A stretch of 48,943 bases of DNA from Chimaeribacter arupi (GTDB lineage: Bacteria > Pseudomonadota > Gammaproteobacteria > Enterobacterales > Enterobacteriaceae). Within the stretch, counting starts at the first letter, position 1, and the number at the start of each line of letters is the position of its first letter. Location of the stretch: positions 1-48,943 of the forward strand of contig NZ_PJZI01000038.1 in the NCBI RefSeq assembly GCF_002858805.1. The letters run 5' to 3'. Below the pieces are notes generated by a model. It had not been told where the DNA came from, did not search any database, and saw nothing but the letters and a program-made list of their open reading frames with translations. The translations under genes were made by a program, and so were the position numbers. This document shows, piece after piece, positions 14,555 through 29,297 of this stretch.

Positions 14555-14672
14555 ATTTAAATAGTGTTTTTATAGCGTCTTTTTGGTGCTTTTTTACAGC
14601 TAAAAGGTATGCGTGTTTTTCACGGGTCTGTTGATTTGCCCACCGAAATGCAGAAGCTGGGTGCAGTACAAT

Positions 14673-14700
14673 AACGTTTAACCCTAATGGGTTAAACGTT
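14673..14700. promoter_or_regulatory. 12-bp inverted repeat with TAAT loop
   Basis: AACGTTTAACCC (14673-14684), TAAT, GGGTTAAACGTT (14689-14700): perfect arms. No T-run follows on the plus strand. It sits just before the open frame of the RES gene, so it could be an operator or a hairpin in its leader. Confidence 0.55.
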
Positions 14701-14818
14701 CTGTGGGGAGTTATTCCTCAGAGGTAATTTAAGAAATCGTGTAAGAAAAACAGCAAATGGAGAAACCAAATTAGGAAACATTAAGATTAAAAATTCCATT
14801 ATAAAAGCCGAGCAAGGT

Positions 14819-15229
14819 TTGGCTGCATTAAAAAAAACGGGCAGGATCCCCGCTATTACACTGCATTCAGGTACCACATTGATGCGCAGTCAACCGGGTA
14901 AATATGAGAGTGGCATCCATTACTCAGCCCCGGTGGAAGCTAGGGAATGTGGCCGGTTTAACCCGCCGGGCGGGCAGATTGCCGTCTTGTATGCGGCTGA
15001 TGCTTCGATAACCGCGATGGCTGAGGTCTATGGCCGGACATGCCAGTTGGAGGGTTCGGTTATTTATCCGGAATCCGTGCTTGACCAGCATTACCTCTGC
15101 GCAGTGGAAACGCTCATGACAGTTAAAGTGATTGATATAATTGGACTTTTACAGTGCATGCATATCCCCTTTAGCGATCTTGAAGGTGAGGATTACCGGT
15201 TACCACAATGGTTAATGGCCCGCCTGTAT
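14819..15229 (+). pseudogene. RES-domain toxin-like gene, 5' half, cut by the Tn3-family element
   Basis: RES-domain proteins are toxins that degrade NAD by phosphorolysis. This half holds LMRSQPG, CGRFNPPGG (residues 44-52), VLYAADASITAMAEVYGR (56-73): the conserved Arg and Glu region. The serine region lies in the 3' half at 28214-28468. The gene stops being homologous exactly at the TGTAT target duplication. Joining 14819-15229 to 28214-28468 gives 666 nt, 221 codons plus stop, without frameshift. The start is uncertain: the frame is open from 14696 and the first standard start is TTG at 14819; no strong ribosome site is visible. Transposon sequence currently adds a foreign tail ending at 15352. 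Confidence 0.8.
15225..15229. repeat. Target-site duplication, left copy (TGTAT)
   Basis: The 5 bp immediately outside the left inverted repeat are TGTAT, identical to 28209-28213. Five base pairs is the duplication length made by Tn3-family transposases. Confidence 0.9.
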
Positions 15230-15267
15230 GGGGTCAGTTTGGATATCGAACATTATTGTACGTTAAG
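15230..15267 (+). repeat. Tn3-family terminal inverted repeat, left
   Basis: 38 bp starting GGGGTCAGTTTGG and ending GTACGTTAAG, the typical GGGG...TTAAG form and length of Tn3-family ends. It differs from the complement of 28171-28208 at one position (the 21st). The tnpA stop codon (15253-15255) lies inside it. Confidence 0.93.
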
Positions 15268-18240
15268 GTTTTTTTTTGACCTTTGTACTTTAGCCGGCCT
15301 CAGCCGACGAAAGTTTCCGGAAGCCGGTATCCGGTTGCTTTTCCAGATATAATCGCCTGTCAGATTGATGTGCTCCCAGCCTAACGGCGACAAATGCGAT
15401 AGCAGTTGCTCGTTGATCTTCACCCCTTTACGCTTTAAGGCCTCGACCGCTCTTTCCATATAGACGGTATTCCACAGGGATATGGCAGCTGTCAGGAGCG
15501 TCAGTCCACTGGCGCGATAGCTCTGATTTTCCGGTTTTCGGTCCCTGATTTCACCCAGGCGGTGCAGGAATACCGCACGCGCCAGCGCGTTACGGGCTTC
15601 TCCTTTATTCAGCCCCGCCTGTACCCGCCGACGAAGTCCCCGATCGCGGAACCAGTCGAGCATAAACAGCGTTCGTTCAATACGGCCAATTTCCCTCAAT
15701 GCTTTGGCAAGTCCGTTTTGCTTGGGATAGCTGGCAAGCTTTTTTAGCATCAAGGATGCCGTCACGGTTCCCTGTTTTATCGAGGTGGCCAGACGCAGCA
15801 CTTCACGCCAGTGAATTTCGATCTCTTTCAGGTTCAGGCTGGTCGTTGATATCAGTGACTGAAGCGCCGGGTACTGGTCCGCTTTCCCTTTGATAAACAG
15901 CTTTTTGTCGTGGAGATCCCTGATTCGCGGACAGAACGCAAATCCCAGCAGATGCATCAGGGCAAAGACATGATCAGTGAAACCAGCGGTATCAGTGTAA
16001 TGCTCCCTGATTTCCAGGTCGCTTTCGTGGTACAGCAAGCCATCGAGAACATGGGTTGAATCGCTGACCCGGCTGATTATGCAGGTGTAAAACGGGCTGT
16101 ATTGATCCGAAATATGGGTATAAAACTGACGTCCAAGCTCCTGCCCATATTTCGGGTTAACCTGCCCTGCGTAGCGGCCTGAGCTGCCTGTTCTGAAATT
16201 TTGTCCGTCTGATGATGACGTTGTCCCATCACCCCAGAATGCCGCCAGCGGCCTTTTCCCCTGCGCATTTACCAGCTCTGCAAGGGCGGCTGAATAGGTT
16301 TCGTCACGGATGTACCATGCCTGAATATCTTCGAGTGATGATTTGGTGCTCCCGGGGCAGGCTTCTGCCATTTTGGTCAGGCCAAGATTGATGCCATCCG
16401 CAAGAATGGTGGTGAGAAGCAGCCGGGGATCGGGACGGGTAAGGTCATTTTTTATATGCGAAAAATGTCGGGTAAACATCGTCCAGCTGTTTACCTCATC
16501 GAGAATTTCAGTGATTTTAGGTCGCGGTAGCATGCTGTAGACCAGCTCTGCCAGCGGTGAAACCTGCGCCGGAACGCAGTTATCCAGCGGAGAGACTTTT
16601 ACGCCTCTGTCAGATATTTCCACATCGGGCAGTTCACCAAGGGCAGCCATGGCATTGACCTCTTCAAGTCTGGACTGAAGCAGGGTCATACGGCTGGTAA
16701 TGTACTCATGATAATCAGCTGATACGGGCAGTGGCAGCGCCGGTGTGAGTTTGTCAAAATCCTTTTCGGGCATGAGGTAATCATCAAAATTTTTGTAGCG
16801 GCGCGAGCCTTTAACCCAGATATCCCCAGATCGCAACGCACCTTTAAGCTCGCTGAGAGCACAAAATTCATAGTACTGCCTGTCAATACCCGCAGGTGTA
16901 ATCACCACCTTGCGCCAGCTTTCAGGAACAAACTCAAGCGGCGCTGTCACCGGAACTTTACGTGACTGCTTCCGGTACATATCCTTAATCACAACCAGCG
17001 CATCAGCCAGAGGTTGCGCTGCCGGGGTTGCGACTAACTGTAAAGCAGACAACATGCGCGGGGCATATTTCCGTAATGTGCTGTATTTCTCGGTAATAAT
17101 ATGCAGCGGGTCAAAATTATCTTTCCTGGCGAGGTGGCGTGTTTCCTCCAGACTGGCGACAAATTCAGGCCATGGCAGTATGTTTTCTATTGCGAGCCAT
17201 GGATCGCCACCGGAATCACGGGCTTCAGACAGAGCCTGGCCGACATCGATATATTGCCTCAGTTTGGAGTGGATCAGCTTTCCGGTCTGCTGAAGGCGCT
17301 CAGCCTGTGTTCTTTTGGCTTTGCTGAAAAGGCTGTTTAGCATTCGCTCATGCAGTTCAATCACTTCGTCTGTCAGAGTGGCTCTGGCTTCTTCCAGTAC
17401 GCACACCAGGATCGCATGACGCCAGGCTGCTGAAAATCGGGTCAAATCCCGGCTACTCATCTTTCGGCCTTCCCGTGCCATTTTAAGCAACCGGTTCTGG
17501 TGAATGGTACGATCTATACCTTCCGGTAATGCCAGCGATTCAATGCAACTGAGCCGATCAAGGTGTTGCAGCACGTTCTTACCATTGATTTTACCCGGCG
17601 GTTGCAGAAGCCATGTCAGCCTGGAAGACTGATTATCTGAGGACTCAAGTAAACGCTCTAGGGCATCCCTGTGAGCCGGGGTTAACGGGGCATTCAGAGT
17701 CTGAAATACGATTTTATCGCCGCCTGTCATGGCCTCCGCACAGGTACGCTCCACTACATCAATCGCGGGGATTATCACGTGGTTCTGCCGGAGATAGATC
17801 AGTAACTCTTCGGCCAGGAGAATACCTTTATCGGTGCGCGTCGCCATCGACAGCAGATGTGTAATACAGTCCTGCTGTATTTTGCCGGAGAATGCCTTTA
17901 CGCCAAGATAGCGGTACAGTTCGGTTAAATGCTCACGCCGGGTTGTATCCCTGCCGGAAAGGTAAGCGGGCCAGAGATCCCCGGTGAGTTTTAGCCTGCT
18001 GGCGATATGCTTCAGTAGTGCATCAGATGGGGAGATTTTTTTATCCGGAGCAAAACCGACATTTTTCAGATAGCAAAGAAGGACGGCAAAACCAAAACGG
18101 CTGGCAGGTTTACGGTGAGCACTGATAAGCGCCAGATCATGTTCACTGAAATAGGCCATTCGGGTCAGCGTTAATTCATCGTCCGGTAATGCCAGTAATG
18201 ATTCTCTTTCCGACAGAGAAAGAATCTGCCTCCTTGCCAT
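15253..18240 (-). CDS. tnpA: Tn3-family transposase
   Basis: 995 aa from the ATG at 18240, chosen because GAGGG lies 7 nt upstream and the protein then begins MARRQILSLSERESLLALPD, the common Tn3-family start; an upstream start would add 19 unlike residues. DDE catalytic region: WGDGTTSSSDGQ, then HVLDGLLYHES, with the glutamate in the C-terminal third. It acts on the 38-bp ends to form cointegrates by replicative transposition. Full length with no internal stop, so probably active. The stop codon lies inside the left inverted repeat, as in many relatives. Confidence 0.96.
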   Translation of the reverse strand: MARRQILSLSERESLLALPDDELTLTRMAYFSEHDLALISAHRKPASRFGFAVLLCYLKNVGFAPDKKISPSDALLKHIASRLKLTGDLWPAYLSGRDTTRREHLTELYRYLGVKAFSGKIQQDCITHLLSMATRTDKGILLAEELLIYLRQNHVIIPAIDVVERTCAEAMTGGDKIVFQTLNAPLTPAHRDALERLLESSDNQSSRLTWLLQPPGKINGKNVLQHLDRLSCIESLALPEGIDRTIHQNRLLKMAREGRKMSSRDLTRFSAAWRHAILVCVLEEARATLTDEVIELHERMLNSLFSKAKRTQAERLQQTGKLIHSKLRQYIDVGQALSEARDSGGDPWLAIENILPWPEFVASLEETRHLARKDNFDPLHIITEKYSTLRKYAPRMLSALQLVATPAAQPLADALVVIKDMYRKQSRKVPVTAPLEFVPESWRKVVITPAGIDRQYYEFCALSELKGALRSGDIWVKGSRRYKNFDDYLMPEKDFDKLTPALPLPVSADYHEYITSRMTLLQSRLEEVNAMAALGELPDVEISDRGVKVSPLDNCVPAQVSPLAELVYSMLPRPKITEILDEVNSWTMFTRHFSHIKNDLTRPDPRLLLTTILADGINLGLTKMAEACPGSTKSSLEDIQAWYIRDETYSAALAELVNAQGKRPLAAFWGDGTTSSSDGQNFRTGSSGRYAGQVNPKYGQELGRQFYTHISDQYSPFYTCIISRVSDSTHVLDGLLYHESDLEIREHYTDTAGFTDHVFALMHLLGFAFCPRIRDLHDKKLFIKGKADQYPALQSLISTTSLNLKEIEIHWREVLRLATSIKQGTVTASLMLKKLASYPKQNGLAKALREIGRIERTLFMLDWFRDRGLRRRVQAGLNKGEARNALARAVFLHRLGEIRDRKPENQSYRASGLTLLTAAISLWNTVYMERAVEALKRKGVKINEQLLSHLSPLGWEHINLTGDYIWKSNRIPASGNFRRLRPAKVQRSKKNLNVQ

Positions 18241-18688
18241 ATGGTTTCCCTCATAAATTATTCGATGTGGTATTTTTAACAAAAATGGTTCTCGCATAAG
18301 GGTAACCCCACAGGATGGAGCATCGGGTAACTGTCTCCCCCCGGGGTCTTCATGTTTAGCGACTAACAGTCGATTAGACGTTCTTTCTTAAGGTGTCAGC
18401 TGCGATATAAATACCGAGACCGCCTCTGCCGACTGATTGATATCAGTAATGTCTGCTGTGTGCCAGCAGCGGACATTGCACATGTTGAGTTGTACTAAGA
18501 AAAAGGGATTGGGTCAGTAGCATTGAAGAATTTATGTCGTTATAGAAACGCCTAAACACGTATTTCCCCCCTTATAAAACTCAGCGATGATCTTCTCCCC
18601 GGAAAGCTATCCGGGTAATAACGCATAAAAGTTACTTTTCGCTATTTAACTTTGTGAATTTCATCTGCAATGTTTTTAAGGGTATTCC
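18241..18688. other. Space between tnpA and the cargo
   Basis: 448 bp between divergent tnpA and the MFS gene, where a resolution site would be expected in a Tn3-family element. It contains the GTCYGY-type element at 18449-18476 and no protein-like frame. I cannot identify resolvase-type dyads. It must hold the promoters of both tnpA and the exporter gene. Confidence 0.45.
18449..18476. repeat. GTCYGY-N12-GCGGAC element, copy 5, inside the transposon
   Basis: ATGTCTGC, 12 nt (TGTGTGCCAGCA), GCGGACAT. Arms and spacer length match the four copies at the left end of the window. GTGCCA in the spacer is the complement of the TGGCAC in copies 2 and 4, so this copy may be the same element in the opposite orientation. 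Confidence 0.6.
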
Positions 18689-19867
18689 ATGCAAAATAAA
18701 AGCACCCTGCTTTTACTGGCGCTGTCTGTGGCTGTTTTCGGGGTAATCACCACCGAAATTGCCATCATCGGCTTACTGCCAAAACTGGTTTCTCAGCTCC
18801 ACGTTACGCCCACCCAGGTCGGTTTTCTTGTCAGCATCTATGCCATTATCGTGGCCGTAACCGGACCTTTTATCACGCTAATGCTGTCTGGCTTTAACAA
18901 GAAAACGGTTCTGCTGAGCATTCTGGTCGTCTTTATTGTCTCAAACCTGATTTATGCCACCACTGACGTGTTCAACCTGATGTTGGTGTTTCGCATTCTG
19001 CCTGCGCTGGCTCATGCCGTCTTTTTTGCCGTTGCGCTGGTCGTGGCGGCCAATTCCGTACCGAAAGAAAAAGCCGCAGGCGCTGCAGCAAAAGTGTTTG
19101 CCGGGGTGGCTATTGGCCTGGTGTTGGGTGTCCCCCTCAGCTCTCTGATTGCCGAGCATTTCTCTTTATCCGCAGCGTTTTACTTTGGTGCTGTAGCGTG
19201 CGTGCTGGCCTTCTTGGGCGTCCTGTTCCTGATGCCTTCAATGCCGACCCTGCATAAGGTTTCCTTTGCCAGCCAGCTTTCCGTTCTGCGTAACGGCAAG
19301 CTGTGGCTGACCATCTCAACGGTAACGTTAATTTTCGCCGCAATGTTTTCCAGCTTTAGCTACGTCGCAGATTATCTTTCACGCGTTACTCACCTGAACA
19401 ACAATTACATCAGCGCCATGCTGATCCTGTTCGGCGTCTGTGGCTTTGCCGGTAACTTCGTGTTCAGCAGTTTCCTGCAAAAAAGCGTTGTTAAAACAAC
19501 ACTCGTTTACCCGCTGCTTTTCACATTGCTTCTGCTATTGGTATGGTTCTTCGGCTTCTCACCGTTGGTGATGTGCCTGCTGACCGTGTTCTGGGGCGCA
19601 TTCCACTCCTCCGGCCTGGTGGTCAGTCAGACCTGGCTGATGCGCGAAGCCAGCGAAGCGCCGGAGTTTGCCAACAGCCTTTATATGTCGTTCTCCAATC
19701 TGGGAATTACCCTCGGTTCACTGACGGGCGGATGGTTTATCGCCCGCCTGGGGACGCACTCCGTGGTACTGAGCAGCGTGATCTTCACTCTGCTGGCATT
19801 TGTCAGCATTCTGATTAAGCACCGCTCTGATACTAAAGCAGTACCGGTTCAGGAAGAGATGGCCTGA
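18689..19867 (+). CDS. MFS efflux transporter, transposon cargo
   Basis: 392 aa, about 12 membrane segments, AraJ/YdhP-like drug or sugar proton antiporter of the inner membrane. Visible signs are the N-terminal VFGVITTEIAIIGLLPKL helix with TTE, the RILPALAHAVFFAVA segment (helix 4), and GVAIGLVLGVPL (antiporter motif C, helix 5). AAGGG stands 8 nt before the ATG. It is the first cargo gene after tnpA and ends in its own terminator at 19909, so it is separate from the next gene. Likely exports a substrate or product of the neighbouring flavoenzymes, or a toxic compound they handle; this is inference from context. Confidence 0.85.
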   Translation: MQNKSTLLLLALSVAVFGVITTEIAIIGLLPKLVSQLHVTPTQVGFLVSIYAIIVAVTGPFITLMLSGFNKKTVLLSILVVFIVSNLIYATTDVFNLMLVFRILPALAHAVFFAVALVVAANSVPKEKAAGAAAKVFAGVAIGLVLGVPLSSLIAEHFSLSAAFYFGAVACVLAFLGVLFLMPSMPTLHKVSFASQLSVLRNGKLWLTISTVTLIFAAMFSSFSYVADYLSRVTHLNNNYISAMLILFGVCGFAGNFVFSSFLQKSVVKTTLVYPLLFTLLLLLVWFFGFSPLVMCLLTVFWGAFHSSGLVVSQTWLMREASEAPEFANSLYMSFSNLGITLGSLTGGWFIARLGTHSVVLSSVIFTLLAFVSILIKHRSDTKAVPVQEEMA

Positions 19868-19908
19868 GAAAAATTATGACGGATCGCTGCTGTAAGTAGA
19901 ATCTATGG

Positions 19909-19938
19909 AACCTCTGTTCGGAATAGAACGGGGGTTTT
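19909..19938 (+). terminator. Intrinsic terminator after the cargo MFS gene
   Basis: AACCTCTGTTC (19909-19919) pairs with GAACGGGGGTT (19926-19936) over 11 bp including two G-U pairs, with loop GGAATA, ending in TTTT (19935-19938) before ATT. Confidence 0.7.
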
Positions 19939-19991
19939 ATTCCCTCTTTCAGCACCGCATTATGGAGTTCAGTGATTAAAAGGAGCCTGTA

Positions 19992-21101
19992 ATGGAAAAG
20001 TTGTTTACTTCATACACCGTCGGCGACACGACAATTCAAACCCGTATTGTCATGGCACCGATGACCCGTTCCCGGGCCAGAGAAGGGGATATTGCCGATA
20101 ACCTCACCGCTAAATATTATCGTCAGCGCACATCAGCAGGCCTTATCGTCAGCGAAGGCTCTCAAATTTCCGTTCAGGGGCAGGGGTATCTTTTTACGCC
20201 TGGTATCTACTCTGCTGCACAGGTAGAGGGATGGAAGAAAACGACTCAGGCCGTTCATCAGGCAGGCGGCAAAATATTCATCCAGCTCTGGCATGTTGGG
20301 CGAATTTCTCATGTCAGTCTGCAAAAGAATGGCGCCGCCCCCGTCAGCTCAGTTGCCGTCAGGGCTGAAAACTCGACGTGTTATGCCCGTGATGAAAATG
20401 GCATTGCTGGACCTGTTCCGGTTTCATTCCCACGCGCTCTTTCAGCCAAAGAGATCGGTTTGGTCATTCAGGATTATGTACAGGCCGCTGAAAATGCTAT
20501 TGAAGCGGGTTTTGACGGCGTTGAAATCCACGCGGCAAACGGCTATCTGCTGGAACAGTTCATTAATGGCGCTCTGAACACGCGCAGCGATGAATTCGGT
20601 GGAGAGAGTATTGAGAACCGACTGCGGTTCGTGCTTGAAGTGACTGACGCTGTATCACGGGCGATCGGTGCAGGAAAAACCGGCATACGACTTGCGCCAT
20701 TTGGTCGTCTGTTTGATATGCATGCATTCAGCGGTGAAGAAAAAACCTGGCTGACTCTGGCAGAAAAGCTCACGACACGCCGGCTGGCCTATGTTCACCT
20801 TAGCGATCAACAGACTTTAGGTGAACAGGCTATTCCTGAAGGGTTCATTGATAAATTCAGAAAGGCCTACAGCGGCACGCTCATTATTGCAGGGGGATTC
20901 GATAAGCAACGAGCCGAAATCTATTTGCAGGAAGGAAAAGCGGATCTCATTGCTTTTGGCAGACCCTATATTGCCAATCCTGACCTCACAGAACGGATGA
21001 AAAACGACTGGCCGCTGAATGAAGTTAACCGGGCAACAATGTATGGTGGGGCTGAGGAAGGCTATACCGATTATCCGTTCTGGCCAGACACAACGGCATA
21101 G
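19992..21101 (+). CDS. Old Yellow Enzyme-family alkene reductase 1 (NemA-like)
   Basis: 369 aa FMN ene-reductase that reduces activated C=C bonds of enones or nitro compounds with NAD(P)H. Motifs: VMAPMTRSRA (18-27), IQLWHVGRISH (about 97-107), and GVEIHAANGYLLEQF (about 176-190), where H and N are the substrate-binding pair of the classical OYE group. The C-terminal FGRPYIANPDL binds FMN phosphate. AAAGGAG lies 8 nt before the ATG. It is paralogous to the gene at 24014. It converges on the LysR gene with only 8 bp between stops. Confidence 0.93.
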   Translation: MEKLFTSYTVGDTTIQTRIVMAPMTRSRAREGDIADNLTAKYYRQRTSAGLIVSEGSQISVQGQGYLFTPGIYSAAQVEGWKKTTQAVHQAGGKIFIQLWHVGRISHVSLQKNGAAPVSSVAVRAENSTCYARDENGIAGPVPVSFPRALSAKEIGLVIQDYVQAAENAIEAGFDGVEIHAANGYLLEQFINGALNTRSDEFGGESIENRLRFVLEVTDAVSRAIGAGKTGIRLAPFGRLFDMHAFSGEEKTWLTLAEKLTTRRLAYVHLSDQQTLGEQAIPEGFIDKFRKAYSGTLIIAGGFDKQRAEIYLQEGKADLIAFGRPYIANPDLTERMKNDWPLNEVNRATMYGGAEEGYTDYPFWPDTTA

Positions 21102-21109
21102 TCGTACCA

Positions 21110-22021
21110 TCAGTCAAGTAAGCCGTCATCTGCTGCCTTTATCAACGTGTCCACAACATAACGAATTTTAGGTAACAGCTGGCGGTTTTTAGGCCAGAGC
21201 GCACTGATGGGCATTTCTCCACCGGAATGTCCGACCAGAACCTCTTTCAGCTCCCCTGATTCAAGATATTTTCCAACCAGCCATAACGGCAGTTGTGAAA
21301 GCCCACAGCCAGCCAGCGTGGCCGATAATATCGCATCTCCGTCCGCAAACTCATGGGTCGGTGGCGGCGTATACCGCGAAATCTGACCATCATTTTCTTT
21401 GAGTAGCCAGGAGATCGGCTGATTCCGGCGAAACCCCACCACACACTGATGCTGGCTCAGTTCTTCAGATGAAACGGGTTCTCCACCGTACAGTAAATAG
21501 TCAGGGGAAGCGCAGATAACCAGTTTCTGCGTGGTCAGCCTTCTGGCAACCAGCCCACTGCTGTCGGCAAGTTCACCAATGCGGATGACAAGGTCAATAC
21601 CCTCCTCAATGAGGTCGACAAACCGTTCGCTGAAAGTGACGGTTAATGCGAGTTCGGGATAACGGCGTGTAATCTGCAGCAGGATCGGCAAAATACGCTG
21701 TCTGCCAAAGGCTGCGGGTAAGTCCACCCGTAGCCTCCCTGAAGGCTGGCAGATATGAGAGGTCAACTCGGCTTCTGCCTGCTCAAGAATATCCATGGCA
21801 TTTTGACAACTTATCAGGAAACGCTCACCATCCGGCGTCAGGCTCAGACGCCGCGTGGATCGCAGAAACAGTTTAAGTCCCAGCCTGGCTTCAAGACGAC
21901 CCACACTTTTACCCACGGCTGATTTTGTCAGCCCGAGTCTCTCAGCCGCCGCGGTAAAACTTCCCTGCTGTGCGGTAGTGACAAAGGCGGTAATTCCGCC
22001 CAGGTGATCGGTATTTCGCAT
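21110..22021 (-). CDS. LysR-family regulator of the transposon cargo
   Basis: 303 aa. Helix-turn-helix near residues 18-60 with GSFTAAAERLGLTKSAVGKSVGRLE and STRRLSLTPDGERFL; C-terminal effector-binding domain of the usual size. It follows the NTF2-like gene by 22 bp on the same strand, so the two form an operon divergent from the monooxygenase operon at 23019. The 22779-23018 spacer is therefore the probable binding region. The effector would be the compound metabolised by the cargo; not readable from sequence. Confidence 0.92.
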   Translation of the reverse strand: MRNTDHLGGITAFVTTAQQGSFTAAAERLGLTKSAVGKSVGRLEARLGLKLFLRSTRRLSLTPDGERFLISCQNAMDILEQAEAELTSHICQPSGRLRVDLPAAFGRQRILPILLQITRRYPELALTVTFSERFVDLIEEGIDLVIRIGELADSSGLVARRLTTQKLVICASPDYLLYGGEPVSSEELSQHQCVVGFRRNQPISWLLKENDGQISRYTPPPTHEFADGDAILSATLAGCGLSQLPLWLVGKYLESGELKEVLVGHSGGEMPISALWPKNRQLLPKIRYVVDTLIKAADDGLLD

Positions 22022-22043
22022 GTTGAATATTCCGTTAAGTGCT

Positions 22044-22778
22044 TCAGGACCAGTCTGCGTGACGAATGACGAGGTAGCGGCCTCCCTCTTCAGCCAGTTC
22101 CAGGCTGAGTCTTCGTTTAGTACCGTCTACAGGGAGTAACAGGGTGCACTTCATCGCCAGAATGTCTGTCTCTTCAATATTCATCCCGTCGGGATCGGCA
22201 CTGCGTAAAAATACGGGTAAATTCTGCCGTGTATTCTCATCGGCATTCCCGGAAACGATCGTTGAAACAACCCCAGGCCTTGCAGTCAGCATAAGCTGAG
22301 AGAAACGGGCTATAAACGAATGTACCCGGTTTTCACTGAATGACTCACGGAATACCTTATCAGGGTTTTGATATACGGGAGTTTTCTGCAGGAAAGTAAA
22401 AACAGCGTCCTCTCCCTCACCGAATAAGAGCGTTGTCCGGTATTCCGAAAGTGCCCCTCCCACCGTCAAATCACTTTCGACCCTCTGGTAGCCAATATCC
22501 ATATTAACGGTTGCCTCGTTTTCCTGGCCGGGGATAAATTCAAAGCGTCGGATAAAGTGCGAGCCCTTTTCGTATGGCAGGCTTTTCAACCAGCTATCCA
22601 TTCCGTCTTTTCCTTCAGCCAGAAGATGCGTGCCGGCATGAACCAGCCTGACGTACGGAGAGAAAATATCCAGATGCCGGCTGACCTCCTCTGTTTGCCC
22701 CTCAAAAAAAGCAAACCAGCGATGGGCAATATCACATGCCGAGTAATACCGGGCTTTCCAAATCTGCTCTTCAGTCAT
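22044..22778 (-). CDS. NTF2/SnoaL-like hypothetical protein
   Basis: 244 aa, soluble. N-terminal half looks like an NTF2-like alpha+beta cone: WFAFFEGQTEEVSRHLDIFSPYVRLVHAG, the usual first helix and strand of SnoaL-like polyketide cyclase or dehydratase-fold proteins. The C-terminal half (about 120-244) has a second similar pattern (VHSFIARFSQLML..., ending VIRHADWS), so two fused units are likely. AAGGA lies before the ATG at 22778, immediately beside a (TGTC)7 tract. It precedes the LysR gene in an operon. A catalytic function is unproven; it may share a role with the double NTF2 protein at 26636. Confidence 0.65.
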   Translation of the reverse strand: MTEEQIWKARYYSACDIAHRWFAFFEGQTEEVSRHLDIFSPYVRLVHAGTHLLAEGKDGMDSWLKSLPYEKGSHFIRRFEFIPGQENEATVNMDIGYQRVESDLTVGGALSEYRTTLLFGEGEDAVFTFLQKTPVYQNPDKVFRESFSENRVHSFIARFSQLMLTARPGVVSTIVSGNADENTRQNLPVFLRSADPDGMNIEETDILAMKCTLLLPVDGTKRRLSLELAEEGGRYLVIRHADWS

Positions 22779-22863
22779 TGTTTTTCCTTGTCTGTCTGTC
22801 TGTCTGTCTGTCTGTCGCGTCGTGTCGCAGGTGGTTTTGGTTTGTTGACGCAGAGTAAGACAT
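22771..22863 (-). other. Possible leader ORF running through the repeat tract
   Basis: An ATG at 22863 opens 30 codons that run through the repeat and stop at TGA 22773-22771, just inside the NTF2-like gene, in another frame. The distance from this ATG to the gene ATG is 85 nt. Loss of one 4-nt unit makes it 81 nt and fuses the two frames with no stop. No strong ribosome site precedes 22863, so its translation is uncertain. Confidence 0.3.
22789..22816. repeat. (TGTC)7 tetranucleotide tract
   Basis: Seven perfect tandem TGTC units (GACA on the minus strand), 10 bp upstream of the NTF2-like start codon at 22778 and adjoining its AAGGA ribosome site. Tracts like this change length by slipped-strand mispairing. 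Confidence 0.9.
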
Positions 22864-23018
22864 CAAAGATACCCGTAAAGAAGAAGCAGGATTGTAGAAC
22901 CTAAGTCCGCATAGATGCGACCGAAACCCGATTTATCATCCGTGTAAAAACAATCATAGTAATTTCCGAAATGATTAATTTACCTCCGGACGACTGTTCC
23001 GGCGATGTGGAGATAATG

Positions 23019-24014
23019 ATGAAAGAGAAAACAATCCCCCTGTCACTGCTTGACCTGGCACCCATTACCGAAGGCAATACCCTTTCTGACGCCATTACCA
23101 ACAGCGTGCGGCTGGCGCAGGCCGCCGAAAAAGCCGGGTATCACCGTTTCTGGATGGCAGAGCATCACAATATGGTCGATATCGCCAGCGCGGCGACGGC
23201 GGTGATACTCAGCCATATCGGCGCAAAAACTGAAAAAATCCGTATCGGCTCGGGTGGCATTATGCTGCCAAACCATGCACCGCTTGTTGTCGCTGAGCAG
23301 TTTGGCACGCTTGAGATTATGTATCCGGGCCGCGTTGATTTAGGTCTGGGCCGTGCGCCGGGCACTGACCAGGAAACATTGCAGGCGCTGCGCCGTGAAA
23401 CCCGCGCCAAAGGTCTCGACTTTCCCGACATGCTGGATGAACTACAGCATTTTCTTGCGCCTGCGCAACGCGGGCAGCGTATTACGGCCGTGCCGGGTGC
23501 GGGACTCGATATTCCGTTGTGGCTGCTGGGTTCGAGTACCTTCAGTGCACAGCTGGCGGCGCAGAAAGGTTTGCCCCTTGTTTTTGCCTCTCACTTTGCG
23601 CCTGATGCCATGCTTGCTGCCATTGATACCTATCGTTCAGGCTTCCGCCCCTCAGAATCGCTTGCCGAACCGTATGTGATGATTTGCGTCAACGTCGTCG
23701 CCGCTGAAAGCCAGAGCGAAGCAGACTATCTGGCGACTACCGAACTGCAGAAGTTTGTAAATCTGGGGCGGGGCGTTGAGGTGAAATTACCGAAGCCGGT
23801 AGACGATATGAATGCGCTCTGGCATCCGGTCGAGGCTCAGCGCGTACTGACTCAGCTGCGTGAATCGGTGTGGGGCACAAAAGAGACCGTCCGGACCGGA
23901 CTGAATGACCTGGTCCGCCGTACCGGTGCGGATGAAATTATGGTGAATTCGTGGATACATGATGCCGATGCAAGGATCAGGTCACATCAGCTCATCGCTG
24001 AAGCCTGGAACTGA
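23019..24014 (+). CDS. Luciferase-like monooxygenase 1 (YhbW-like LLM)
   Basis: 331 aa, flavin-dependent LLM class enzyme, TIM barrel. Family blocks: [14 protein letters not shown] at the N-terminus, [10 protein letters not shown] (about 41-50), [26 protein letters not shown] (about 75-100) and [23 protein letters not shown]. Uses reduced FMN and oxygen supplied by a separate reductase. The ATG at 23019 was preferred because GGAG is 6 nt upstream; ATG at 23016 and 22971 are alternatives. The gene opens the plus-strand cargo operon and overlaps the next gene by one base (TGATG). Substrate unknown. Confidence 0.9.
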
Positions 24015-25108
24015 TGGCGATGAAGAAGCTATTTACCGGCTACAGGCTCGGCGATATCACGCTGAAAAACCGCTTTATCATGGCGCCCATGACGCGCTCC
24101 CGCGCACGGGACGAGCATGCTGATGCCTTAACGGCACTTTATTACGCACAACGTGCCAGCGCCGGATTAATTATTTCTGAAGGTTTACCGGTCTCTCGTG
24201 AAGGCACTGGCTATCTCTTTAATCCGGGGATCTATCTCGACAGTCATGTTGAAGCCTGGCTGCCCGTCACACAGGGCGTGCATAAGAAAGGAGGAAAAAT
24301 ATTTGCTCAGCTCTGGCATGTTGGACGGGTATCTCATACCAGCCTCCAGCCTGAGGGGCAGCCCCCTGTCAGCGCCGTCGCCGTTCAGGGTGGCAGCGCC
24401 TTTGCCTGGGATGAAAATGGTGAACCTGCAACGGTTCCTGCAAGCCCGCCCCGCGCCCTGCTGACTGAAGAGATTAAGCAGATAGTGGCTGATTTTCGCA
24501 AGGCCGCTGCCAACGCCATTTCGGCGGGGTTTGATGGCGTGGAGGTGCATGGTGCCAATGGCTATCTCATTGAACAATTCATTAATCCTGTACTGAATAC
24601 GCGCGATGACGGCTATGGCGGCGGAAGCCTGGCAAGCCGTACGCGCCTTCTTCTGGAAATTGTTGACGCCATTTCAGATGAAATTGGTACAAGCCGGACG
24701 GGCGTGCGCCTTTCCCCCTGTAATCAACTTCAGGACATGGCTCCTTACGCCGATACCTCAGAAACCTATCTTTATATCGGTAAGGAGCTTAGCCGCAGAG
24801 GGATAGCTTATGTCCACCTGATGGCCCAGGGGCCCGTGATGTTTAACGGCCTGTTGCGCGATTTCCGAAAGGTATGGCGTGGCACGCTTATCCTCGCCGG
24901 TGGCCTTACTCCCGTTCAGGCCGCGGCACTTATCGACGATGGGCTGACCGATCTTGCGGCTTTTGGCAGTCCGTTTATCGCCAATCCAGATTTTGTTGAG
25001 CGGGTCCGCAAGGGCTGGCCACTCACTATGGCCAGGCGCAGTTCCTATTACGGCGGGGGGGAAGAAGGCTATACCGACTATCCCTTCCATGGTGAGGATC
25101 ATGTCTGA
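24014..25108 (+). CDS. Old Yellow Enzyme-family alkene reductase 2
   Basis: 364 aa, paralogue of the enzyme at 19992. Motifs: IMAPMTRSRARDE (21-33), AQLWHVGRVSH, GVEVHGANGYLIEQFINPVLNTRDD with the substrate-binding H and N, and FGSPFIANPDF for FMN phosphate. Translationally coupled to the monooxygenase before it. A reductase paired with a monooxygenase suggests consecutive steps on one enone or aromatic substrate: C=C reduction and oxygenation. The 150-bp gap after it, before the EthD gene, contains no terminator that I can see, so the operon may continue. Confidence 0.92.
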   Translation: MAMKKLFTGYRLGDITLKNRFIMAPMTRSRARDEHADALTALYYAQRASAGLIISEGLPVSREGTGYLFNPGIYLDSHVEAWLPVTQGVHKKGGKIFAQLWHVGRVSHTSLQPEGQPPVSAVAVQGGSAFAWDENGEPATVPASPPRALLTEEIKQIVADFRKAAANAISAGFDGVEVHGANGYLIEQFINPVLNTRDDGYGGGSLASRTRLLLEIVDAISDEIGTSRTGVRLSPCNQLQDMAPYADTSETYLYIGKELSRRGIAYVHLMAQGPVMFNGLLRDFRKVWRGTLILAGGLTPVQAAALIDDGLTDLAAFGSPFIANPDFVERVRKGWPLTMARRSSYYGGGEEGYTDYPFHGEDHV

Positions 25109-25258
25109 GGCGCAGCCAGTGAAACTCCAGGCACCACTAACCTGCTATTAGCCAAACTTAATGGCATTGCGTCAGGATGCACCAGAAAACGCGCGTCAGC
25201 TTCATCAATTACGCTGTTTCAAACAATATTTGCAGATAACTGTACACAGGAGAACACG

Positions 25259-25585
25259 ATGACATCTTCAAACGGCTTCAAGCATGTGGGCTTTCTTACC
25301 CGTAAAAAGGGACAGAGCTTTGAGGAGTTTGTAAAGCACTGGGATGAAGTACACACGGAAATTGCACTGCGTTTACCGGGATTACGGGGCTACGTCCTTA
25401 ACCCTGTCGATCGTGAAAAATACCCGGATGCACCGGTCGATGGGTTCTCTGAATTATGGTTCGACTCCATTGAGGATGCCGTGGCCGCCTTTGACTCGCC
25501 GGTTGGTCAGGAAGCCTTCCGGGATGTGCCGAACTTTGTCGATAGTGCCGCCATCACCTACATCACCGAAATCAGAAAACGTTAA
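25259..25585 (+). CDS. EthD-domain protein
   Basis: 108 aa, a single ferredoxin-like EthD/Dabb-type unit. Family features: VGFLTRKKGQSFEEFVKHWDEVHTEIALRLPGLRGYV near the N-terminus (the H..VH and LPGLRGY pattern) and a C-terminal strand ITEIRKR. EthD relatives act as small lyases or cyclases, or as accessory proteins in ether degradation and polyketide tailoring. AGGAG stands 7 nt before the ATG. It lies between the flavoenzymes, so it may process an unstable intermediate. Confidence 0.85.
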   Translation: MTSSNGFKHVGFLTRKKGQSFEEFVKHWDEVHTEIALRLPGLRGYVLNPVDREKYPDAPVDGFSELWFDSIEDAVAAFDSPVGQEAFRDVPNFVDSAAITYITEIRKR

Positions 25586-25634
25586 GACATCACTCTTAGC
25601 CAGCGTTCGCGCTGGTTAACACCGGACCGTCAAA

Positions 25635-26639
25635 ATGACCCCATCAGACAGTGAAATCTCGAAAATGCCACCGGCTCTCTCAACGCATGCCGGATATGCC
25701 CGGATCTTTCAGCCGGGAAAACTCACCTTTGGCTTCATAATGCCACTGGAAGGGTATCCATTCTCTCCCTGGCCTACGATGCATCAGCATCTTGAACTCG
25801 CGAGTAAGGCCGACAGCGCTGGATTCAGCAGCCTTTGGTTACGCGATGTGCCTTTCTTCGATCCGGCTTTTGGTGATACCGGCCAGATTCTGGACCCGAT
25901 GGTTTATCTTGGTGCCCTGGCGACGACCACGAAGCAGATAACTCTAGGTACTACAGGGATTGTTCTTCCCCTTCGCGATCCTGTGATAACGGCCAAACAG
26001 GCAATGTCAGTGGATTTTCTCTCTCACGGCCGGTTTGTTATGGGACTTTCTACCGGTGACCGCCCGACTGAGTATCCCGCATTTGGCGCGAATTATGATA
26101 ATCGAGCAGCGCGCTACCGCGATGCATGGGATTTGATTGAGACACTGACGCAAAAGAATTTCCCCAAAGCAAAATCTGAGTTTTATGGCGAGTTAAACGG
26201 CAACCTCACGATGATGCCCAAGCCTGTCAGTAAGAAAATCCCCACAATCGTAGTGGGCCGCGCGCGACAGGAAATTAGCTGGATAGCTGAACGCAGCGAT
26301 GGCTGGATATGGCACATCGGTGATTTTGGACAACTTTCTGATCTCATCACCTGGTGGCGCTCATTACTCCCTGCTGGTGTATTTAAACCTTACGGGTATG
26401 CCACCTTCTTTGATTTGGACGAAAATCCCGACCTCCCTCTACAGCAGGGTTTCAACGGCATCCGGACAGGCAGAAATGCACTGATAAACCTGTGGAAAAC
26501 GCAGGAATCCCAGGGCGTATCGCATATTGCCCTTAACCTCAAGCCTGCCCGCCGACCCGCCGCAGATATCCTGCAGGAGATGGCAGAATTTGTATTACCT
26601 CACTTTCCAGGCGCTGTACAGAAAGGAGATACTCAATGA
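25635..26639 (+). CDS. Luciferase-like monooxygenase 2 (TIGR03571-type LLM)
   Basis: 334 aa flavin-dependent oxidoreductase of the bacterial luciferase superfamily. Blocks: LTFGFIMPLEGY, SLWLRDVPFFDPAFGDTGQ, LGTTGIVLPLRDPVITAKQAMSVD (first 20 residues are diagnostic), and GRFVMGLSTGDRPTEYPAFG. The first about 25 residues are extra and the ribosome site is weak, so a later start is possible. Its TGA overlaps the ATG of the next gene (ATGA at 26636-26639). It is only distantly related to monooxygenase 1, so the cargo carries two different LLM enzymes. Confidence 0.88.
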   Translation: MTPSDSEISKMPPALSTHAGYARIFQPGKLTFGFIMPLEGYPFSPWPTMHQHLELASKADSAGFSSLWLRDVPFFDPAFGDTGQILDPMVYLGALATTTKQITLGTTGIVLPLRDPVITAKQAMSVDFLSHGRFVMGLSTGDRPTEYPAFGANYDNRAARYRDAWDLIETLTQKNFPKAKSEFYGELNGNLTMMPKPVSKKIPTIVVGRARQEISWIAERSDGWIWHIGDFGQLSDLITWWRSLLPAGVFKPYGYATFFDLDENPDLPLQQGFNGIRTGRNALINLWKTQESQGVSHIALNLKPARRPAADILQEMAEFVLPHFPGAVQKGDTQ

Positions 26640-27589
26640 TTACCCCTCTTAGCCGCTCAGATGCACTCGGTTTTATGGAAAAACTTCGCAAAAACTGGGA
26701 ATCCGGCCTCTGGGCCGATGCGGAAGACTTTATGGCTGATACGGTCAAACTCAGAAGCAGCCACAAAGGCATGCTTCATGGTAAAGAAGCCTTAATCGCA
26801 GCACTACGTGAAGATACAATGTCTGAAAAGCATCTGAATCTGGTTACTTCTAATTATTATGCAGCTGCGAACGGAGAAGGGACCGCCATGGTAAGCGCCT
26901 ATCTGTATGGTGAGGTGGCGCCAGGCGCAAAATATAATCCCGTTGCCCTTTTTGGTGCAGTGTTGCGACTGACGCTGAAAGCAGAGTCTGACGGCTGGAA
27001 GCTTACCGAAGTGCTTATAAACATTGGCTGGGCGGAAGGTGACAGTGATTATCTGGTTAACTGGCGTCTGCCTCCTGGGCAGCAGGGGTGGCGTCCGGGA
27101 GATGCCCCACCTGTTCTGGTCAGTGAGCTGGATTCCCCCTGGCATTGCATTGCGCACAACCAGATAAAGGCGACTGAAGAAGAGCAAATTGAGGAGTCGT
27201 ATTCACGCTATTCGTGGGGGATCGACCAGAATGATTTTAGCCAGTTCCGCACCTGTTACACCGTAGATGCTTGCGGACAATTTCCTCCTCTGGGACCCTT
27301 AAACGGCCTGCACAATATTGTCGGATCGCTGAAAGAGTTTCGTCGTCACTGGCCATGGATGCAGCATTATGGCGTCCCACTAAAAATTACCCTTGGAACT
27401 GACGGTAAAACGGCTGAAATGTGGACGGGCCGCTTAATCCCCGGGCAGATAAAAAATGAGAATGGTGAGTGGATGTACGGTGCTCACTATCGAATCGAGC
27501 TTCGCAAAGAAGAGGGTTTGTGGAAGTTCAGCTGGAGCGAGTACGTTCCCGGTTGGTTCACTGAAGAGAATCCTCCATTTCTGAACTGA
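26636..27589 (+). CDS. Double NTF2/SnoaL-like domain protein
   Basis: 317 aa with two NTF2-like units. Unit 1 (about 10-130): FMEKLRKNWESGLWADAEDFM, then GMLHGKEALIAAL, the usual SnoaL helix and G-K-E-A turn. Unit 2 (about 180-310): EEEQIEESYSRYSWGIDQND, then LNGLHNIVGSLKEFR and WMQHYGVPLKITLG. Such folds serve as cyclases, dehydratases, isomerases or ring-hydroxylase small subunits. AAGGAGAT precedes the ATG and it overlaps the monooxygenase gene. It is the last gene of the plus-strand cargo operon and is followed by a strong hairpin. Confidence 0.78.
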   Translation: MITPLSRSDALGFMEKLRKNWESGLWADAEDFMADTVKLRSSHKGMLHGKEALIAALREDTMSEKHLNLVTSNYYAAANGEGTAMVSAYLYGEVAPGAKYNPVALFGAVLRLTLKAESDGWKLTEVLINIGWAEGDSDYLVNWRLPPGQQGWRPGDAPPVLVSELDSPWHCIAHNQIKATEEEQIEESYSRYSWGIDQNDFSQFRTCYTVDACGQFPPLGPLNGLHNIVGSLKEFRRHWPWMQHYGVPLKITLGTDGKTAEMWTGRLIPGQIKNENGEWMYGAHYRIELRKEEGLWKFSWSEYVPGWFTEENPPFLN

Positions 27590-27611
27590 AACTCTTGGCG
27601 CCTTTTTTGGG

Positions 27612-27644
27612 CAATTAAGCTTTCAGGCTTTGAAGGCTTAATTG
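27612..27644. terminator. Strong hairpin after the cargo operon
   Basis: CAATTAAGC (27612-27620) pairs with GCTTAATTG (27636-27644); the stem extends through a G-U pair and TTCA/TGAA to a 5-nt GGCTT loop, 14 bp in all. It lies 22 bp after the stop. No clean T-run follows (TTAAGTCGTTG), so termination efficiency is uncertain. Confidence 0.55.
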
Positions 27645-27949
27645 TTAAGTCGTTGTTTGAAGTAAAAATCCCCTCAGCCACTACAATTCATAAAGACAAT
27701 TGCTAATATCCCGAAAAATATCACCGGTGAAAGTTATGAGATTCGATCGGGTCATCCCTTTACTCCGCTATAAAAGTACAAAAAAGCACCTTAAGTACAA
27801 TATTTCCGTTTCCCAAACGGGGCCCTATAAGGTCTTGCCAGGGGTATCAAGAGTGCCAGATCAAGTCCGGGCTAATACAGACTACGCTATACAAGAGATA
27901 TTATTTATCTGGCTTTTCCAACGTGGTCCAGCTTGATCTCTATGATCAA
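27645..27949. other. Right-end segment of the transposon without a recognised gene
   Basis: 305 AT-rich bp. A 78-codon open frame at 27700-27936 lacks a ribosome site and does not look like protein. I see nothing else here. Confidence 0.35.
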
Positions 27950-28093
27950 TCATTGGGCTACTTCCATGAGTAATTCTGGTTCATCATTCTTGTTGGCAAA
28001 AAAAGCATAAAATGACATGCCAATTTCATCCCCTTTAGCCGCAATCCTGGCTTCACATACCTTCACTGTCTTCGCTCGAATGATGGCTCTCAT
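27950..28093 (-). CDS. Possible 47-aa protein near the right transposon end
   Basis: Starts MRAIIRAKTVKVCEARIAAK and ends LLMEVAQ; basic N-terminal strand, acidic C-terminus. AGGGA lies about 9 nt before the ATG and the sequence looks protein-like. It ends without a terminator and may be a truncated 5' part of a longer gene whose rest was lost. Family not recognised. Confidence 0.4.
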   Translation of the reverse strand: MRAIIRAKTVKVCEARIAAKGDEIGMSFYAFFANKNDEPELLMEVAQ

Positions 28094-28170
28094 GACCTAT
28101 CCCTGGTGTGGTTGCGGAGGCCCCTGACTATCACACAGCGGTTAACGAGAGGGGTAGGTCAAAATTTAGC

Positions 28171-28208
28171 CTTAACGTACAATAATGCTCGATATCCAAA
28201 CTGACCCC
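28171..28208 (-). repeat. Tn3-family terminal inverted repeat, right
   Basis: 38 bp, CTTAACGTACAATAATG at the inner side to AACTGACCCC at the outer edge; complementary to 15230-15267 except at one position. Confidence 0.93.
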
Positions 28209-28213
28209 TGTAT
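28209..28213. repeat. Target-site duplication, right copy (TGTAT)
   Basis: Identical to 15225-15229 and directly outside the right inverted repeat. Confidence 0.9.
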
Positions 28214-28468
28214 GCAGACTATGGGGAAACATTTGATGGCATCGCCTATGACAGCAGGCATCGCCGATATAAGAAATGCTACGCTTTCTGGCGTCAGCCA
28301 GGGAGAACGATCCCTTTCAGAGATACACCGGGGGGAATGTGGACATTGAGGGAATACAAAGAGTATGACTCCGCGATATTCCCCTCTGGCTGGGCAGAAT
28401 CTTATATGACGGGCGAAGCATTGCTTGAAGAGGGGCTAAACTTCCAGATTGCCTCAGACCCGTACTGA
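28209..28468 (+). pseudogene. RES-domain toxin-like gene, 3' half
   Basis: Begins with the second copy of the target duplication TGTAT (28209-28213) and continues in the frame of 14819-15229: YGETFDGIAYDSRHRRY..., ending IASDPY and TGA at 28466-28468. DGIAYDS is the C-terminal RES motif carrying the conserved serine. An intrinsic terminator follows at once. Without the transposon the gene would be intact. Confidence 0.82.
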
Positions 28469-28472
28469 TGAC

Positions 28473-28500
28473 AGAGGGGCACCGTTGCGCCCCTCTTTTT
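28473..28500 (+). terminator. Intrinsic terminator of the RES gene
   Basis: AGAGGGGC (28473-28480) and GCCCCTCT (28489-28496) form an 8-bp stem with an 8-nt loop, followed by TTTTT to 28500. It overlaps the stop of the convergent gene by 2 bp. Confidence 0.85.
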
Positions 28501-29113
28501 AACCTGCCATCTGCTGACCAAAAAGATGGGCGTTACGCACCAACACGGCCATCTCTTTTTCGTTTGCGCCGTTCTGTAATATCTCAATGGGGGTTCTGTA
28601 AACGCCCTCATCATGCACATCGATCGGCGTTTTCAGATGATTCAGCATCAACATTGGGTGAAGCGCAGGATCATAGGCACTCATCACCTCTTCAAAGCCG
28701 GGCAGTAAACCCGCTTCAGTAAACTGGAAACGTGGGTAGATAAAATCGCCGTTCTGTTTAAAGGCCAGCAGCCTGTTCTTTTTCACACGGGCATTCACGC
28801 CTTGCCGGGAAATACCCAGAATATTCGCGACATCATTCACTTTGAGGGTGCCGCCCAATGCCTGAAGCTGCTCGTAGAATTTTTCCAGGTTTTCACGGCG
28901 ACGGCGGGCCTTACGCAGTTCACTGTCGGGTACCCGGGTGTTTTGCTCGAGCATCGTCGTGTATAAACGCTGGATTAACGTTTTATCATCCAGGCTGACC
29001 GCGTTCATGGCCTCTGCCTTGTCTTCAAATTCAGGCATTAAGGCCAGTGCTATGTTGTTGATGCGCTTAAGCAGGTTAAGCTGATACTCATTCAATTTGG
29101 CCGCATGTGTCAT
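28499..29113 (-). CDS. Antitoxin-like DNA-binding protein
   Basis: 204 aa. A basic, helical N-terminal half with a charged stretch RKARRRRENLEKF (68-80), then a helix-turn-helix at about 91-112 (KVNDVANILGISRQGVNARV). The C-terminal tail (about 150-204: P.L...L....GVYRTPIEILQNG.....V..AHLFG) follows the pattern of the toxin-binding tail of Xre/MbcA/ParS antitoxins that partner RES toxins. It lies tail-to-tail with the RES gene, 30 bp apart, rather than in an operon with it. I infer that it is the cognate antitoxin or a derived regulator, now left without an intact toxin. Confidence 0.6.
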   Translation of the reverse strand: MTHAAKLNEYQLNLLKRINNIALALMPEFEDKAEAMNAVSLDDKTLIQRLYTTMLEQNTRVPDSELRKARRRRENLEKFYEQLQALGGTLKVNDVANILGISRQGVNARVKKNRLLAFKQNGDFIYPRFQFTEAGLLPGFEEVMSAYDPALHPMLMLNHLKTPIDVHDEGVYRTPIEILQNGANEKEMAVLVRNAHLFGQQMAG

Positions 29114-29156
29114 AAATTACCCCTCTTGAATGTACAGTATACAGCCAGTTTACCAG

Positions 29157-29185
29157 TTACTAAAGTCGTTATCTGTTATTAGTAA
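29157..29185. promoter_or_regulatory. TTACTAA/TTAGTAA dyad upstream of the antitoxin-like gene
   Basis: TTACTAA (29157-29163) and TTAGTAA (29179-29185) are inverted with a 15-nt spacer, 44 bp upstream of the start at 29113. A possible autoregulatory operator. TGTACAGTATACA nearby (about 29131-29143) is a second small dyad. Confidence 0.4.
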
Positions 29186-29297
29186 AGCATTACGGCGAAT
29201 TGTGCAATTCGCACACAGAAATCACGACAGCGCAGGCACATCATAGCTCTCTTCCATTGCCCCTCGTATCCGCGATAGATTCACCCTAAACTCACCT

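What the first reader, a model, noticed from the sequence alone, without database searches (positions are those of the whole stretch)
15225..28213. Complete 13-kb Tn3-family transposon with exact ends, target duplication and interrupted gene
38-bp ends at 15230-15267 and 28171-28208 match at 37 of 38 positions, 5-bp TGTAT copies flank them, tnpA is intact, and the RES gene halves rejoin in frame (666 nt, 221 codons plus stop). These independent signs agree on the borders to the base. Near-identical ends suggest recent insertion.
Basis: seen in the sequence. Interest (0 to 1): 0.85.

Follow-up and report, generated by a model that had tools for sequence, protein, structure and literature searches.

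The report
Metabolic-cargo transposon lacking its resolvase
A 13-kb jumping DNA element of a well-known family has landed inside a small toxin-like gene, carrying nine genes that look like a small-molecule breakdown or detoxification pathway; the kind of event is ordinary, but this element has lost the enzyme that normally finishes the jump.

Summary
Confirmed to the base. 38-bp ends at 15230-15267 and 28171-28208 match at 37 of 38 positions, TGTAT flanks both, and the 12,979-bp element splits a RES-domain gene. Uninterrupted RES homologues exist; on two plasmids and in a sister species they sit beside the same convergent DNA-binding gene that lies past the right end here. TnpA is full length (995 aa), 89.8% identical to a TnEc1-labelled transposase and 34.5% to a Tn5403-labelled one. 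'Complete' needs a qualifier: tnpR is absent, and homology to relatives stops at, or within about 10 bp of, the centre of the inferred res site I. The right end is a DUF6500-IRR segment of the same clade, preceded by a remnant end of a sister Tn3 clade. Between lie nine genes (MFS, two OYEs, LysR, unknown, two luciferase-like monooxygenases, EthD, SnoaL-like), eight of them collinear in another genus of the family. No second copy was found in the collections searched. A sister species lacks both transposon and RES pair at this locus, so an exact orthologous empty site was not found. Verdict: a real new member of a known kind with unusual mosaic anatomy; near-identical ends do not show recency.

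The parts
15225..15229 (.). left copy of the 5-bp target duplication TGTAT
15230..15267 (+). left 38-bp terminal inverted repeat
   Evidence: 1 mismatch to the form of the end in relatives
15253..18240 (-). tnpA, Tn3-family transposase, 995 aa plus stop (coding 15256-18240); the ORF is open to an upstream ATG at 18297; D678, D750 and E881 align with the DDE triad of Tn4430 (identity of the triad recalled)
18241..18304 (.). tnpA-side part of the inferred res region; homology to relatives stops here or within about 10 bp, at the centre of the best palindrome
   Evidence: alignments and palindrome scan
18305..18521 (.). 217 bp of unassigned origin between the res break and the passenger homology
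18689..19867 (+). MFS transporter
   Evidence: PF07690; 89% aa in G423
19992..21101 (+). Old-yellow-enzyme family flavoprotein 1
   Evidence: PF00724; 79% aa in G423
21110..22021 (-). LysR-family regulator
   Evidence: PF03466, PF00126; 88% aa in G423
22044..22778 (-). 244-aa protein of unknown family
   Evidence: no Pfam or NCBIfam family above cut-off; relatives in 2 of the other 393 genomes of the order searched
22971..24014 (+). MsnO8-family luciferase-like monooxygenase
   Evidence: TIGR03558 above cut-off; 88% aa in G423
24014..25108 (+). Old-yellow-enzyme family flavoprotein 2
   Evidence: PF00724; 77% aa in G423
25259..25585 (+). EthD-family protein
   Evidence: PF07110, TIGR02118; 81% aa in G423
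25635..26639 (+). TIGR03571-family luciferase-like monooxygenase; no counterpart in the G423 cluster
   Evidence: TIGR03571 above cut-off
26636..27589 (+). SnoaL/NTF2-like protein
   Evidence: PF13577; 73% aa in G423
27775..27838 (-). remnant end of a sister Tn3 clade (TnpA of that clade 76% identical to the window's)
   Evidence: 58 of 66 columns identical to L078; local score 24 against the outer end, at most 15 in 20 letter shuffles
27876..28208 (.). right end segment of the parent clade (DUF6500 region plus IRR), 272 of 333 columns identical to L017
27890..28093 (-). DUF6500 gene with a premature stop (47-aa ORF 27950-28093)
28171..28208 (-). right 38-bp terminal inverted repeat
28209..28213 (.). 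right copy of the target duplication TGTAT
14819..15229 (+). left piece of the interrupted RES gene (first start codon in frame is TTG)
28214..28468 (+). right piece of the interrupted RES gene
28499..29113 (-). DNA-binding protein gene convergent with RES; conserved partner
   Evidence: 64%, 61% and 48% aa beside RES in L084, L085 and L040

Best explanation
Shown by sequence: a Tn3-family transposon of the clade whose nearest labelled member here is TnEc1 inserted into a RES gene, with a 5-bp duplication and its own 38-bp ends as borders, and it carries a nine-gene flavoenzyme cluster. Inferred: its TnpA made the insertion by replicative paste-and-copy transposition. The element descends from a compact parent (IRL, tnpA, res, tnpR, DUF6500, IRR; 4,161 bp in L017) in which tnpR and the tnpR-side part of res were replaced by the cluster and by one end of a sister Tn3 element. 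Because tnpR and most of the inferred res are gone, the cointegrate was probably resolved by host homologous recombination. Most likely origin of the join, with lower confidence (about 0.5): resolvase-mediated recombination at the crossover point of res site I. Cargo role, inferred: LysR-controlled uptake or export plus ene-reduction and flavin-dependent monooxygenation of a small molecule.
For: Ends, duplication and single copy. Full-length transposase and conserved residues. TnpA 89.8% to TnEc1-labelled protein. Same ends bounding different cargo: 4,161 bp L017, 6,394 bp L018, 17,859 bp L055, 5,192 bp L073, 4,744 bp L074, with an exact 5-bp duplication in L018 and L055. tnpR not found. Homology break at or near the centre of the best palindrome between tnpA and tnpR (13 of 18 arm positions; next best 10 of 18). 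Right end from the same clade. Inner sister end. Collinear cluster in G423, 8 of 9 genes, without a tnpA match and with no stretch closer than 17 mismatches to the 38-bp end. RES and partner adjacent in L040, L084 and L085.
Against: No exact orthologous empty site: sister species G001 lacks RES and its partner as well, with a 221-aa ORF in that place. The sequence right of the res break does not match any relative's right half-site beyond a few bases, and no second tnpR follows, so a simple res-by-res exchange does not fully explain the join; the palindrome had no shuffle control and res itself is inferred. Resolution in trans is not excluded: the genome holds one serine recombinase, 48% identical to the clade's TnpR. 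Two of the five relatives with both ends show no target duplication and have a broken tnpA (L073, L074). Transposition activity is untested.
Confidence: 0.9

Rival explanations
1. tnpR was lost by an ordinary deletion or illegitimate join whose breakpoint fell near the res centre by chance; the resolvase played no part.
For: 217 bp of unassigned sequence lie between the break and the cluster; no hybrid res or second tnpR follows. A broken tnpR also occurs in L018, so the gene can be lost in other ways.
Against: The break falls 0 to about 10 bp from the centre of the best palindrome in the 174-bp stretch. Resolvase exchange at res site I is proposed for other Tn3 elements (PMC7157771, section 9 read).
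Confidence: 0.4
2. The cluster arrived inside the sister Tn3 element, whose right end survives at 27775-27838, and a later deletion fused the two elements.
For: Remnant end well above shuffles, 83-88% to the tnpA-side ends of two sister elements, oriented so that its body would lie on the cluster side.
Against: No sister tnpR found inside the element and no second tnpA; the left end of such an element was not seen (scan).
Confidence: 0.45
3. The 13 kb came in by homologous recombination or an assembly join, and the ends and duplication are coincidental or inherited.
For: Only this genome was found to hold it.
Against: Duplication, ends and the split point of RES agree; the end pair is unique in the genome.
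Confidence: 0.03
4. Cointegrates of this element are resolved in trans by the genome's own serine recombinase.
For: One PF00239 protein in the genome, 48% identical to the clade's TnpR over 202 residues.
Against: The tnpR-side part of the inferred res site is missing, so a resolvase would have little to act on.
Confidence: 0.1

Closest known systems
TnEc1 (as labelled on E. coli plasmid p602A1-220K-mcr3, CP100014.1)
   Same: TnpA 89.8% identical over 990 aa; the label is the record's own.
   Different: A recombinase gene lies beside tnpA there; none here.
Compact element on Pectobacterium atrosepticum plasmid pLPa1526 (L017)
   Same: TnpA 96.6%, same ends, same DUF6500-IRR right end.
   Different: 4,161 bp with tnpR and an unbroken DUF6500 gene; no flavoenzyme cargo.
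17,859-bp element on an Erwinia pyri plasmid (L055)
   Same: TnpA 95.9%, same ends, TAAAA duplication, large metabolic cargo.
   Different: tnpR present; cargo is a sorbitol PTS operon plus other genes.
Tn4430
   Same: Nearest solved transposase; alignment over residues 3-981.
   Different: Distant; uses a tyrosine recombinase, TnpI (PMC7157771 passage).
Tn5403 (label in record NZ_CP182332.1)
   Same: Tn3 family; TnpA 34.5% over 970 aa.
   Different: A different lineage; the window element is not Tn5403.

Membership tests
Tn3-family transposon | Tn3-type DDE transposase of about 1000 aa | tested here: met
   NF033527 positions 2-954 of 954, PF01526 389 of 389 positions; residues at the Tn4430 triad conserved
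Tn3-family transposon | about 38-bp inverted ends beginning GGGG | tested here: met
   37 of 38
Tn3-family transposon | 5-bp target duplication | tested here: met
   TGTAT on both sides
Tn3-family transposon | resolution module (resolvase gene and full res site) | tested here: not met
   no tnpR by tblastn at E up to 1; res homology ends at or near the site centre. Transposase and ends, not the resolvase, are taken as the essentials here (recalled: resolvase-less members such as IS1071 are known)
Tn3-family transposon | replicative transposition through a cointegrate | not testable with these tools
   needs a transposition assay
TnEc1-like clade | close TnpA and same terminal repeats | tested here: met
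   TnpA 89.8%; the right end matches the TnEc1-labelled record at 88.7% over 53 bp
Tn5403 | close TnpA | tested here: not met
   34.5% over 970 aa
Composite transposon | cargo flanked by two copies of one IS | tested here: not met
   single tnpA match and single pair of ends in the genome

The most novel reading that the evidence does not exclude
The element records how a Tn3-family transposon swaps its own resolution module for a metabolic operon at the resolvase crossover point, becoming a transposon that jumps with TnpA alone and relies on host recombination, while keeping nested ends of two Tn3 clades as a trace of the steps.
Probability: 0.3. Interest if true: 0.5.

Novelty: new member of a known kind. 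Interest (0 to 1): 0.35.

Why it matters
It gives an exactly bordered example of a metabolic gene cluster mobilised by a Tn3-type element, outside the usual resistance cargo. It shows that this clade moves cargo of very different kinds between the same ends: flavoenzymes here and a sorbitol operon in Erwinia pyri. If the res-centre fusion is right, it makes the question of how such elements load and lock cargo testable.

Tried and rejected
Tn5403 membership: my own recollection and one record's label suggested Tn5403, and a notebook entry says so. Comparison with the Tn5403-labelled TnpA in L019 gave 34.5%, so this was dropped. The literature search on Tn5403 (listing only) is therefore of no use here.

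Exact empty site in sister species: G001 matches the window up to 14602 and again from 29277; between them it has a 221-aa ORF and neither RES nor the transposon. G002 has about 10.5 kb of other DNA there. This shows a variable spot next to an integrase gene and does not test the border.

Other copies: 0 of 72,556 plasmid records (2,415 with any match) and 0 of 5,426 E. coli genomes (409 with any match) hold a place that covers 80% of the element; the tool warns that records very near the window's genome may be left out. The passenger alone gives no match in plasmids at near-identity and only short, partial matches (31-517 bp, 65-94%) in the other 3 genomes of the genus.

Further negative results: the DNA-binding partner gave no match at E 1e-15 in the other 393 genomes drawn from the order, and the left RES piece matched 5 of 198 genomes of the family, own included, so the pair is rare on chromosomes sampled. 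Three distant RES-type loci (L017, L023, L024) did not confirm the split.

The one genome-contig scan, with the TIGR03571 protein, found a single 49% relative on a 7-kb contig; reading its ORFs by eye showed no cluster. The 18305-18690 stretch found 6 plasmid records, five with a 31-32 bp match and one with a 132-bp match upstream of an MFS gene. Paper searches for a comparable cargo cluster and for a sorbitol-carrying Tn3 element gave 0 papers; a catabolic-Tn3 search gave 1 paper and a TnEc1 search 4, seen in the listings only, as was a RES search. These searches cover one open-access library and do not show absence from print.

A first script failed on a file name and a family search failed on wrong coordinates; both were redone with correct inputs.
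Full report
Borders. The two 38-bp ends match at 37 of 38 positions and TGTAT flanks both. With 3 mismatches allowed the end occurs exactly twice in the window, and 0 of 100 shuffles gave two matches. In the own genome (4.88 Mb, 121 contigs, 99.9% complete) the first 201 bases of the element match only at these two ends, and TnpA matches once. The element is 12,979 bp.

Interrupted gene. The left RES piece (14819-15229) and the right piece (28214-28468) were searched apart. Seven other RES-type loci were examined with both pieces. In four (L025, L040, L084, L085) the pieces align next to each other, 2 to 4 codons apart, at 32-54% identity; L025 and L084 are 97.5% identical DNA, so three cases are distinct. 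L017 (left none, right E 0.74), L023 (left only) and L024 (neither) are too distant to confirm it. In L084 (Pantoea agglomerans pAJ2b_D) and L085 (Klebsiella pneumoniae pC696_1) the gene is annotated as an uninterrupted 711-nt RES family NAD+ phosphorylase with a convergent DNA-binding gene 37-38 bp away. The window's partner (28499-29113) is 64% and 61% identical to these and 48% to the one in L040; the L025 contig ends right after RES, so its partner cannot be seen. So the DNA left and right of the transposon belongs together.

Orthologous locus. In sister species G001 the left flank matches to 14602 and the right flank from 29277; between them lies a 221-aa ORF, with neither RES nor transposon. 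In G002 the same interval holds about 10.5 kb of other DNA. The site is a variable spot beside an integrase gene (29371-30468, PF00589). This is compatible with the transposon reading and is not a direct empty-site test.

Transposase. The tnpA ORF covers NF033527 nearly whole, and the 995-aa form aligns with the solved Tn4430 transposase over residues 3-981. D678, D750 and E881 stand opposite the Tn4430 catalytic positions (which residues form the triad is recalled). TnpA is 96.6% identical to L017, 89.8% to a TnEc1-labelled protein, 76% to a sister clade (L078, L079) and 34.5% to a Tn5403-labelled protein.

Parent anatomy. Five distinct tnpA-bearing relatives with both ends were measured: L017 4,161 bp, L018 6,394 bp, L055 17,859 bp, L073 5,192 bp, L074 4,744 bp. 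L018 and L055 have exact 5-bp duplications (TTGTA, TAAAA), L017 has a 6-bp TATATA on both sides, and L073 and L074 show none and have tnpA in pieces. tnpR aligns over at least 208 residues in L017, L055, L073 and L074 and in two pieces in L018; the window has none. L017 reads IRL, tnpA, res region, tnpR, DUF6500, IRR. A sixth pair of ends, in L077, bounds 2,362 bp with a CTGTA duplication and no tnpA or tnpR match. L075 and L076 showed only one end each in the stretch held.

How the window element differs. On the left, homology to relatives runs to 18304; beyond that only a few scattered bases agree (blastn carries the match on to 18308 or 18314). This is the centre of the best palindrome between tnpA and tnpR (13 of 18 arm positions, next best 10 of 18, scanned in L003 without a shuffle control). 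The seven aligned relatives (six distinct, because L004 and L055 are the same plasmid) continue with a shared right side that the window lacks. On the right, 27876-28208 is 82% identical to the DUF6500-IRR end of L017, and DUF6500 carries a premature stop. Just inside it, 27775-27838 is 88% identical to the end of a sister Tn3 element; its score against the outer end is 24, against at most 15 in 20 letter shuffles. The element is therefore a mosaic of at least two Tn3 clades plus cargo. Exchange at res site I has been proposed for other Tn3 elements (PMC7157771: passages, section 9); here no second tnpR follows the break, so that mechanism would explain the breakpoint but not the whole join.

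Cargo. Nine genes: MFS, OYE1, LysR, a 244-aa unknown, MsnO8-type LLM, OYE2, EthD, TIGR03571-type LLM and SnoaL-like. In G423, another genus of the family, 8 of 9 are collinear at 48-89% aa identity; the TIGR03571 gene is missing there and no tnpA match lies within the 17 kb held. DNA homology to G423 runs from 18522 to 27565 with gaps. G438 has 7 of 9 and Rhizobium pAtAB2-73d 6 of 9, both rearranged and each with a single OYE gene that matches both paralogues. Two Pantoea plasmids, one Cupriavidus and one Erwinia plasmid hold parts of the set. The gene content suggests uptake or export plus reduction and monooxygenation of a small molecule under LysR control; the substrate is unknown. The MFS protein scores well below the curated cut-offs of the 22 transporter families listed.

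Distribution. 0 of 72,556 plasmid records and 0 of 5,426 E. coli genomes hold a place covering 80% of the element. Of 394 genomes drawn from the order, 18 match some part of 15230-18304 (own included), many of them only an end or a short stretch; besides the own genome three match over at least 3,000 bases, G034, G121 and G153. The 244-aa cargo protein matches 3 of 394, own included. The element as a whole is known from this genome only, within these searches.

Mechanism. Shown: borders, duplication, full-length transposase, missing tnpR and mosaic ends. Inferred: TnpA-driven replicative insertion, cointegrate resolution by host recombination, and origin of the join at res. A trans-acting resolvase is not excluded, since the genome has one serine recombinase 48% identical to the clade's TnpR, but the site it would need is incomplete.

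Verdict. The insertion is an ordinary kind of event; the loss of the resolution module at its crossover point, the nested ends and the conserved metabolic cargo make it somewhat more than routine.

Noticed in passing
14819-15229 and 28214-29113; L040, L084, L085: The RES gene and a 204-219-aa DNA-binding protein form a conserved convergent pair, also on a conjugative plasmid (L085); the window's partner has no Pfam family above cut-off. Described RES systems are, as recalled, co-directional with an Xre-type partner.
   Followed up: partly
L055 101-17959: A 17,859-bp sister transposon on an Erwinia pyri plasmid with perfect 38-bp ends and a TAAAA duplication carries a sorbitol PTS operon and other metabolic genes.
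   Followed up: partly
L077 5863-8224: A 2,362-bp stretch in G044 bounded by the clade's ends and CTGTA on both sides has no tnpA or tnpR match, only two ORFs of 181 and 117 aa inside: probably a non-autonomous relative.
   Followed up: partly
14603-29276: The interval between the treZ side and the integrase gene differs in the window, G001 and G002, suggesting an integration hot spot.
   Followed up: partly
18448-18479: A stretch of 31-32 bp recurs at 94-97% in five records of Klebsiella, Pantoea, Mixta and Salmonella; its nature is unknown.
   Followed up: no
L019 9001-15749: On an E. coli plasmid a Tn5403-labelled element sits inside the tnpA of a copy of the window's transposon clade.
   Followed up: no
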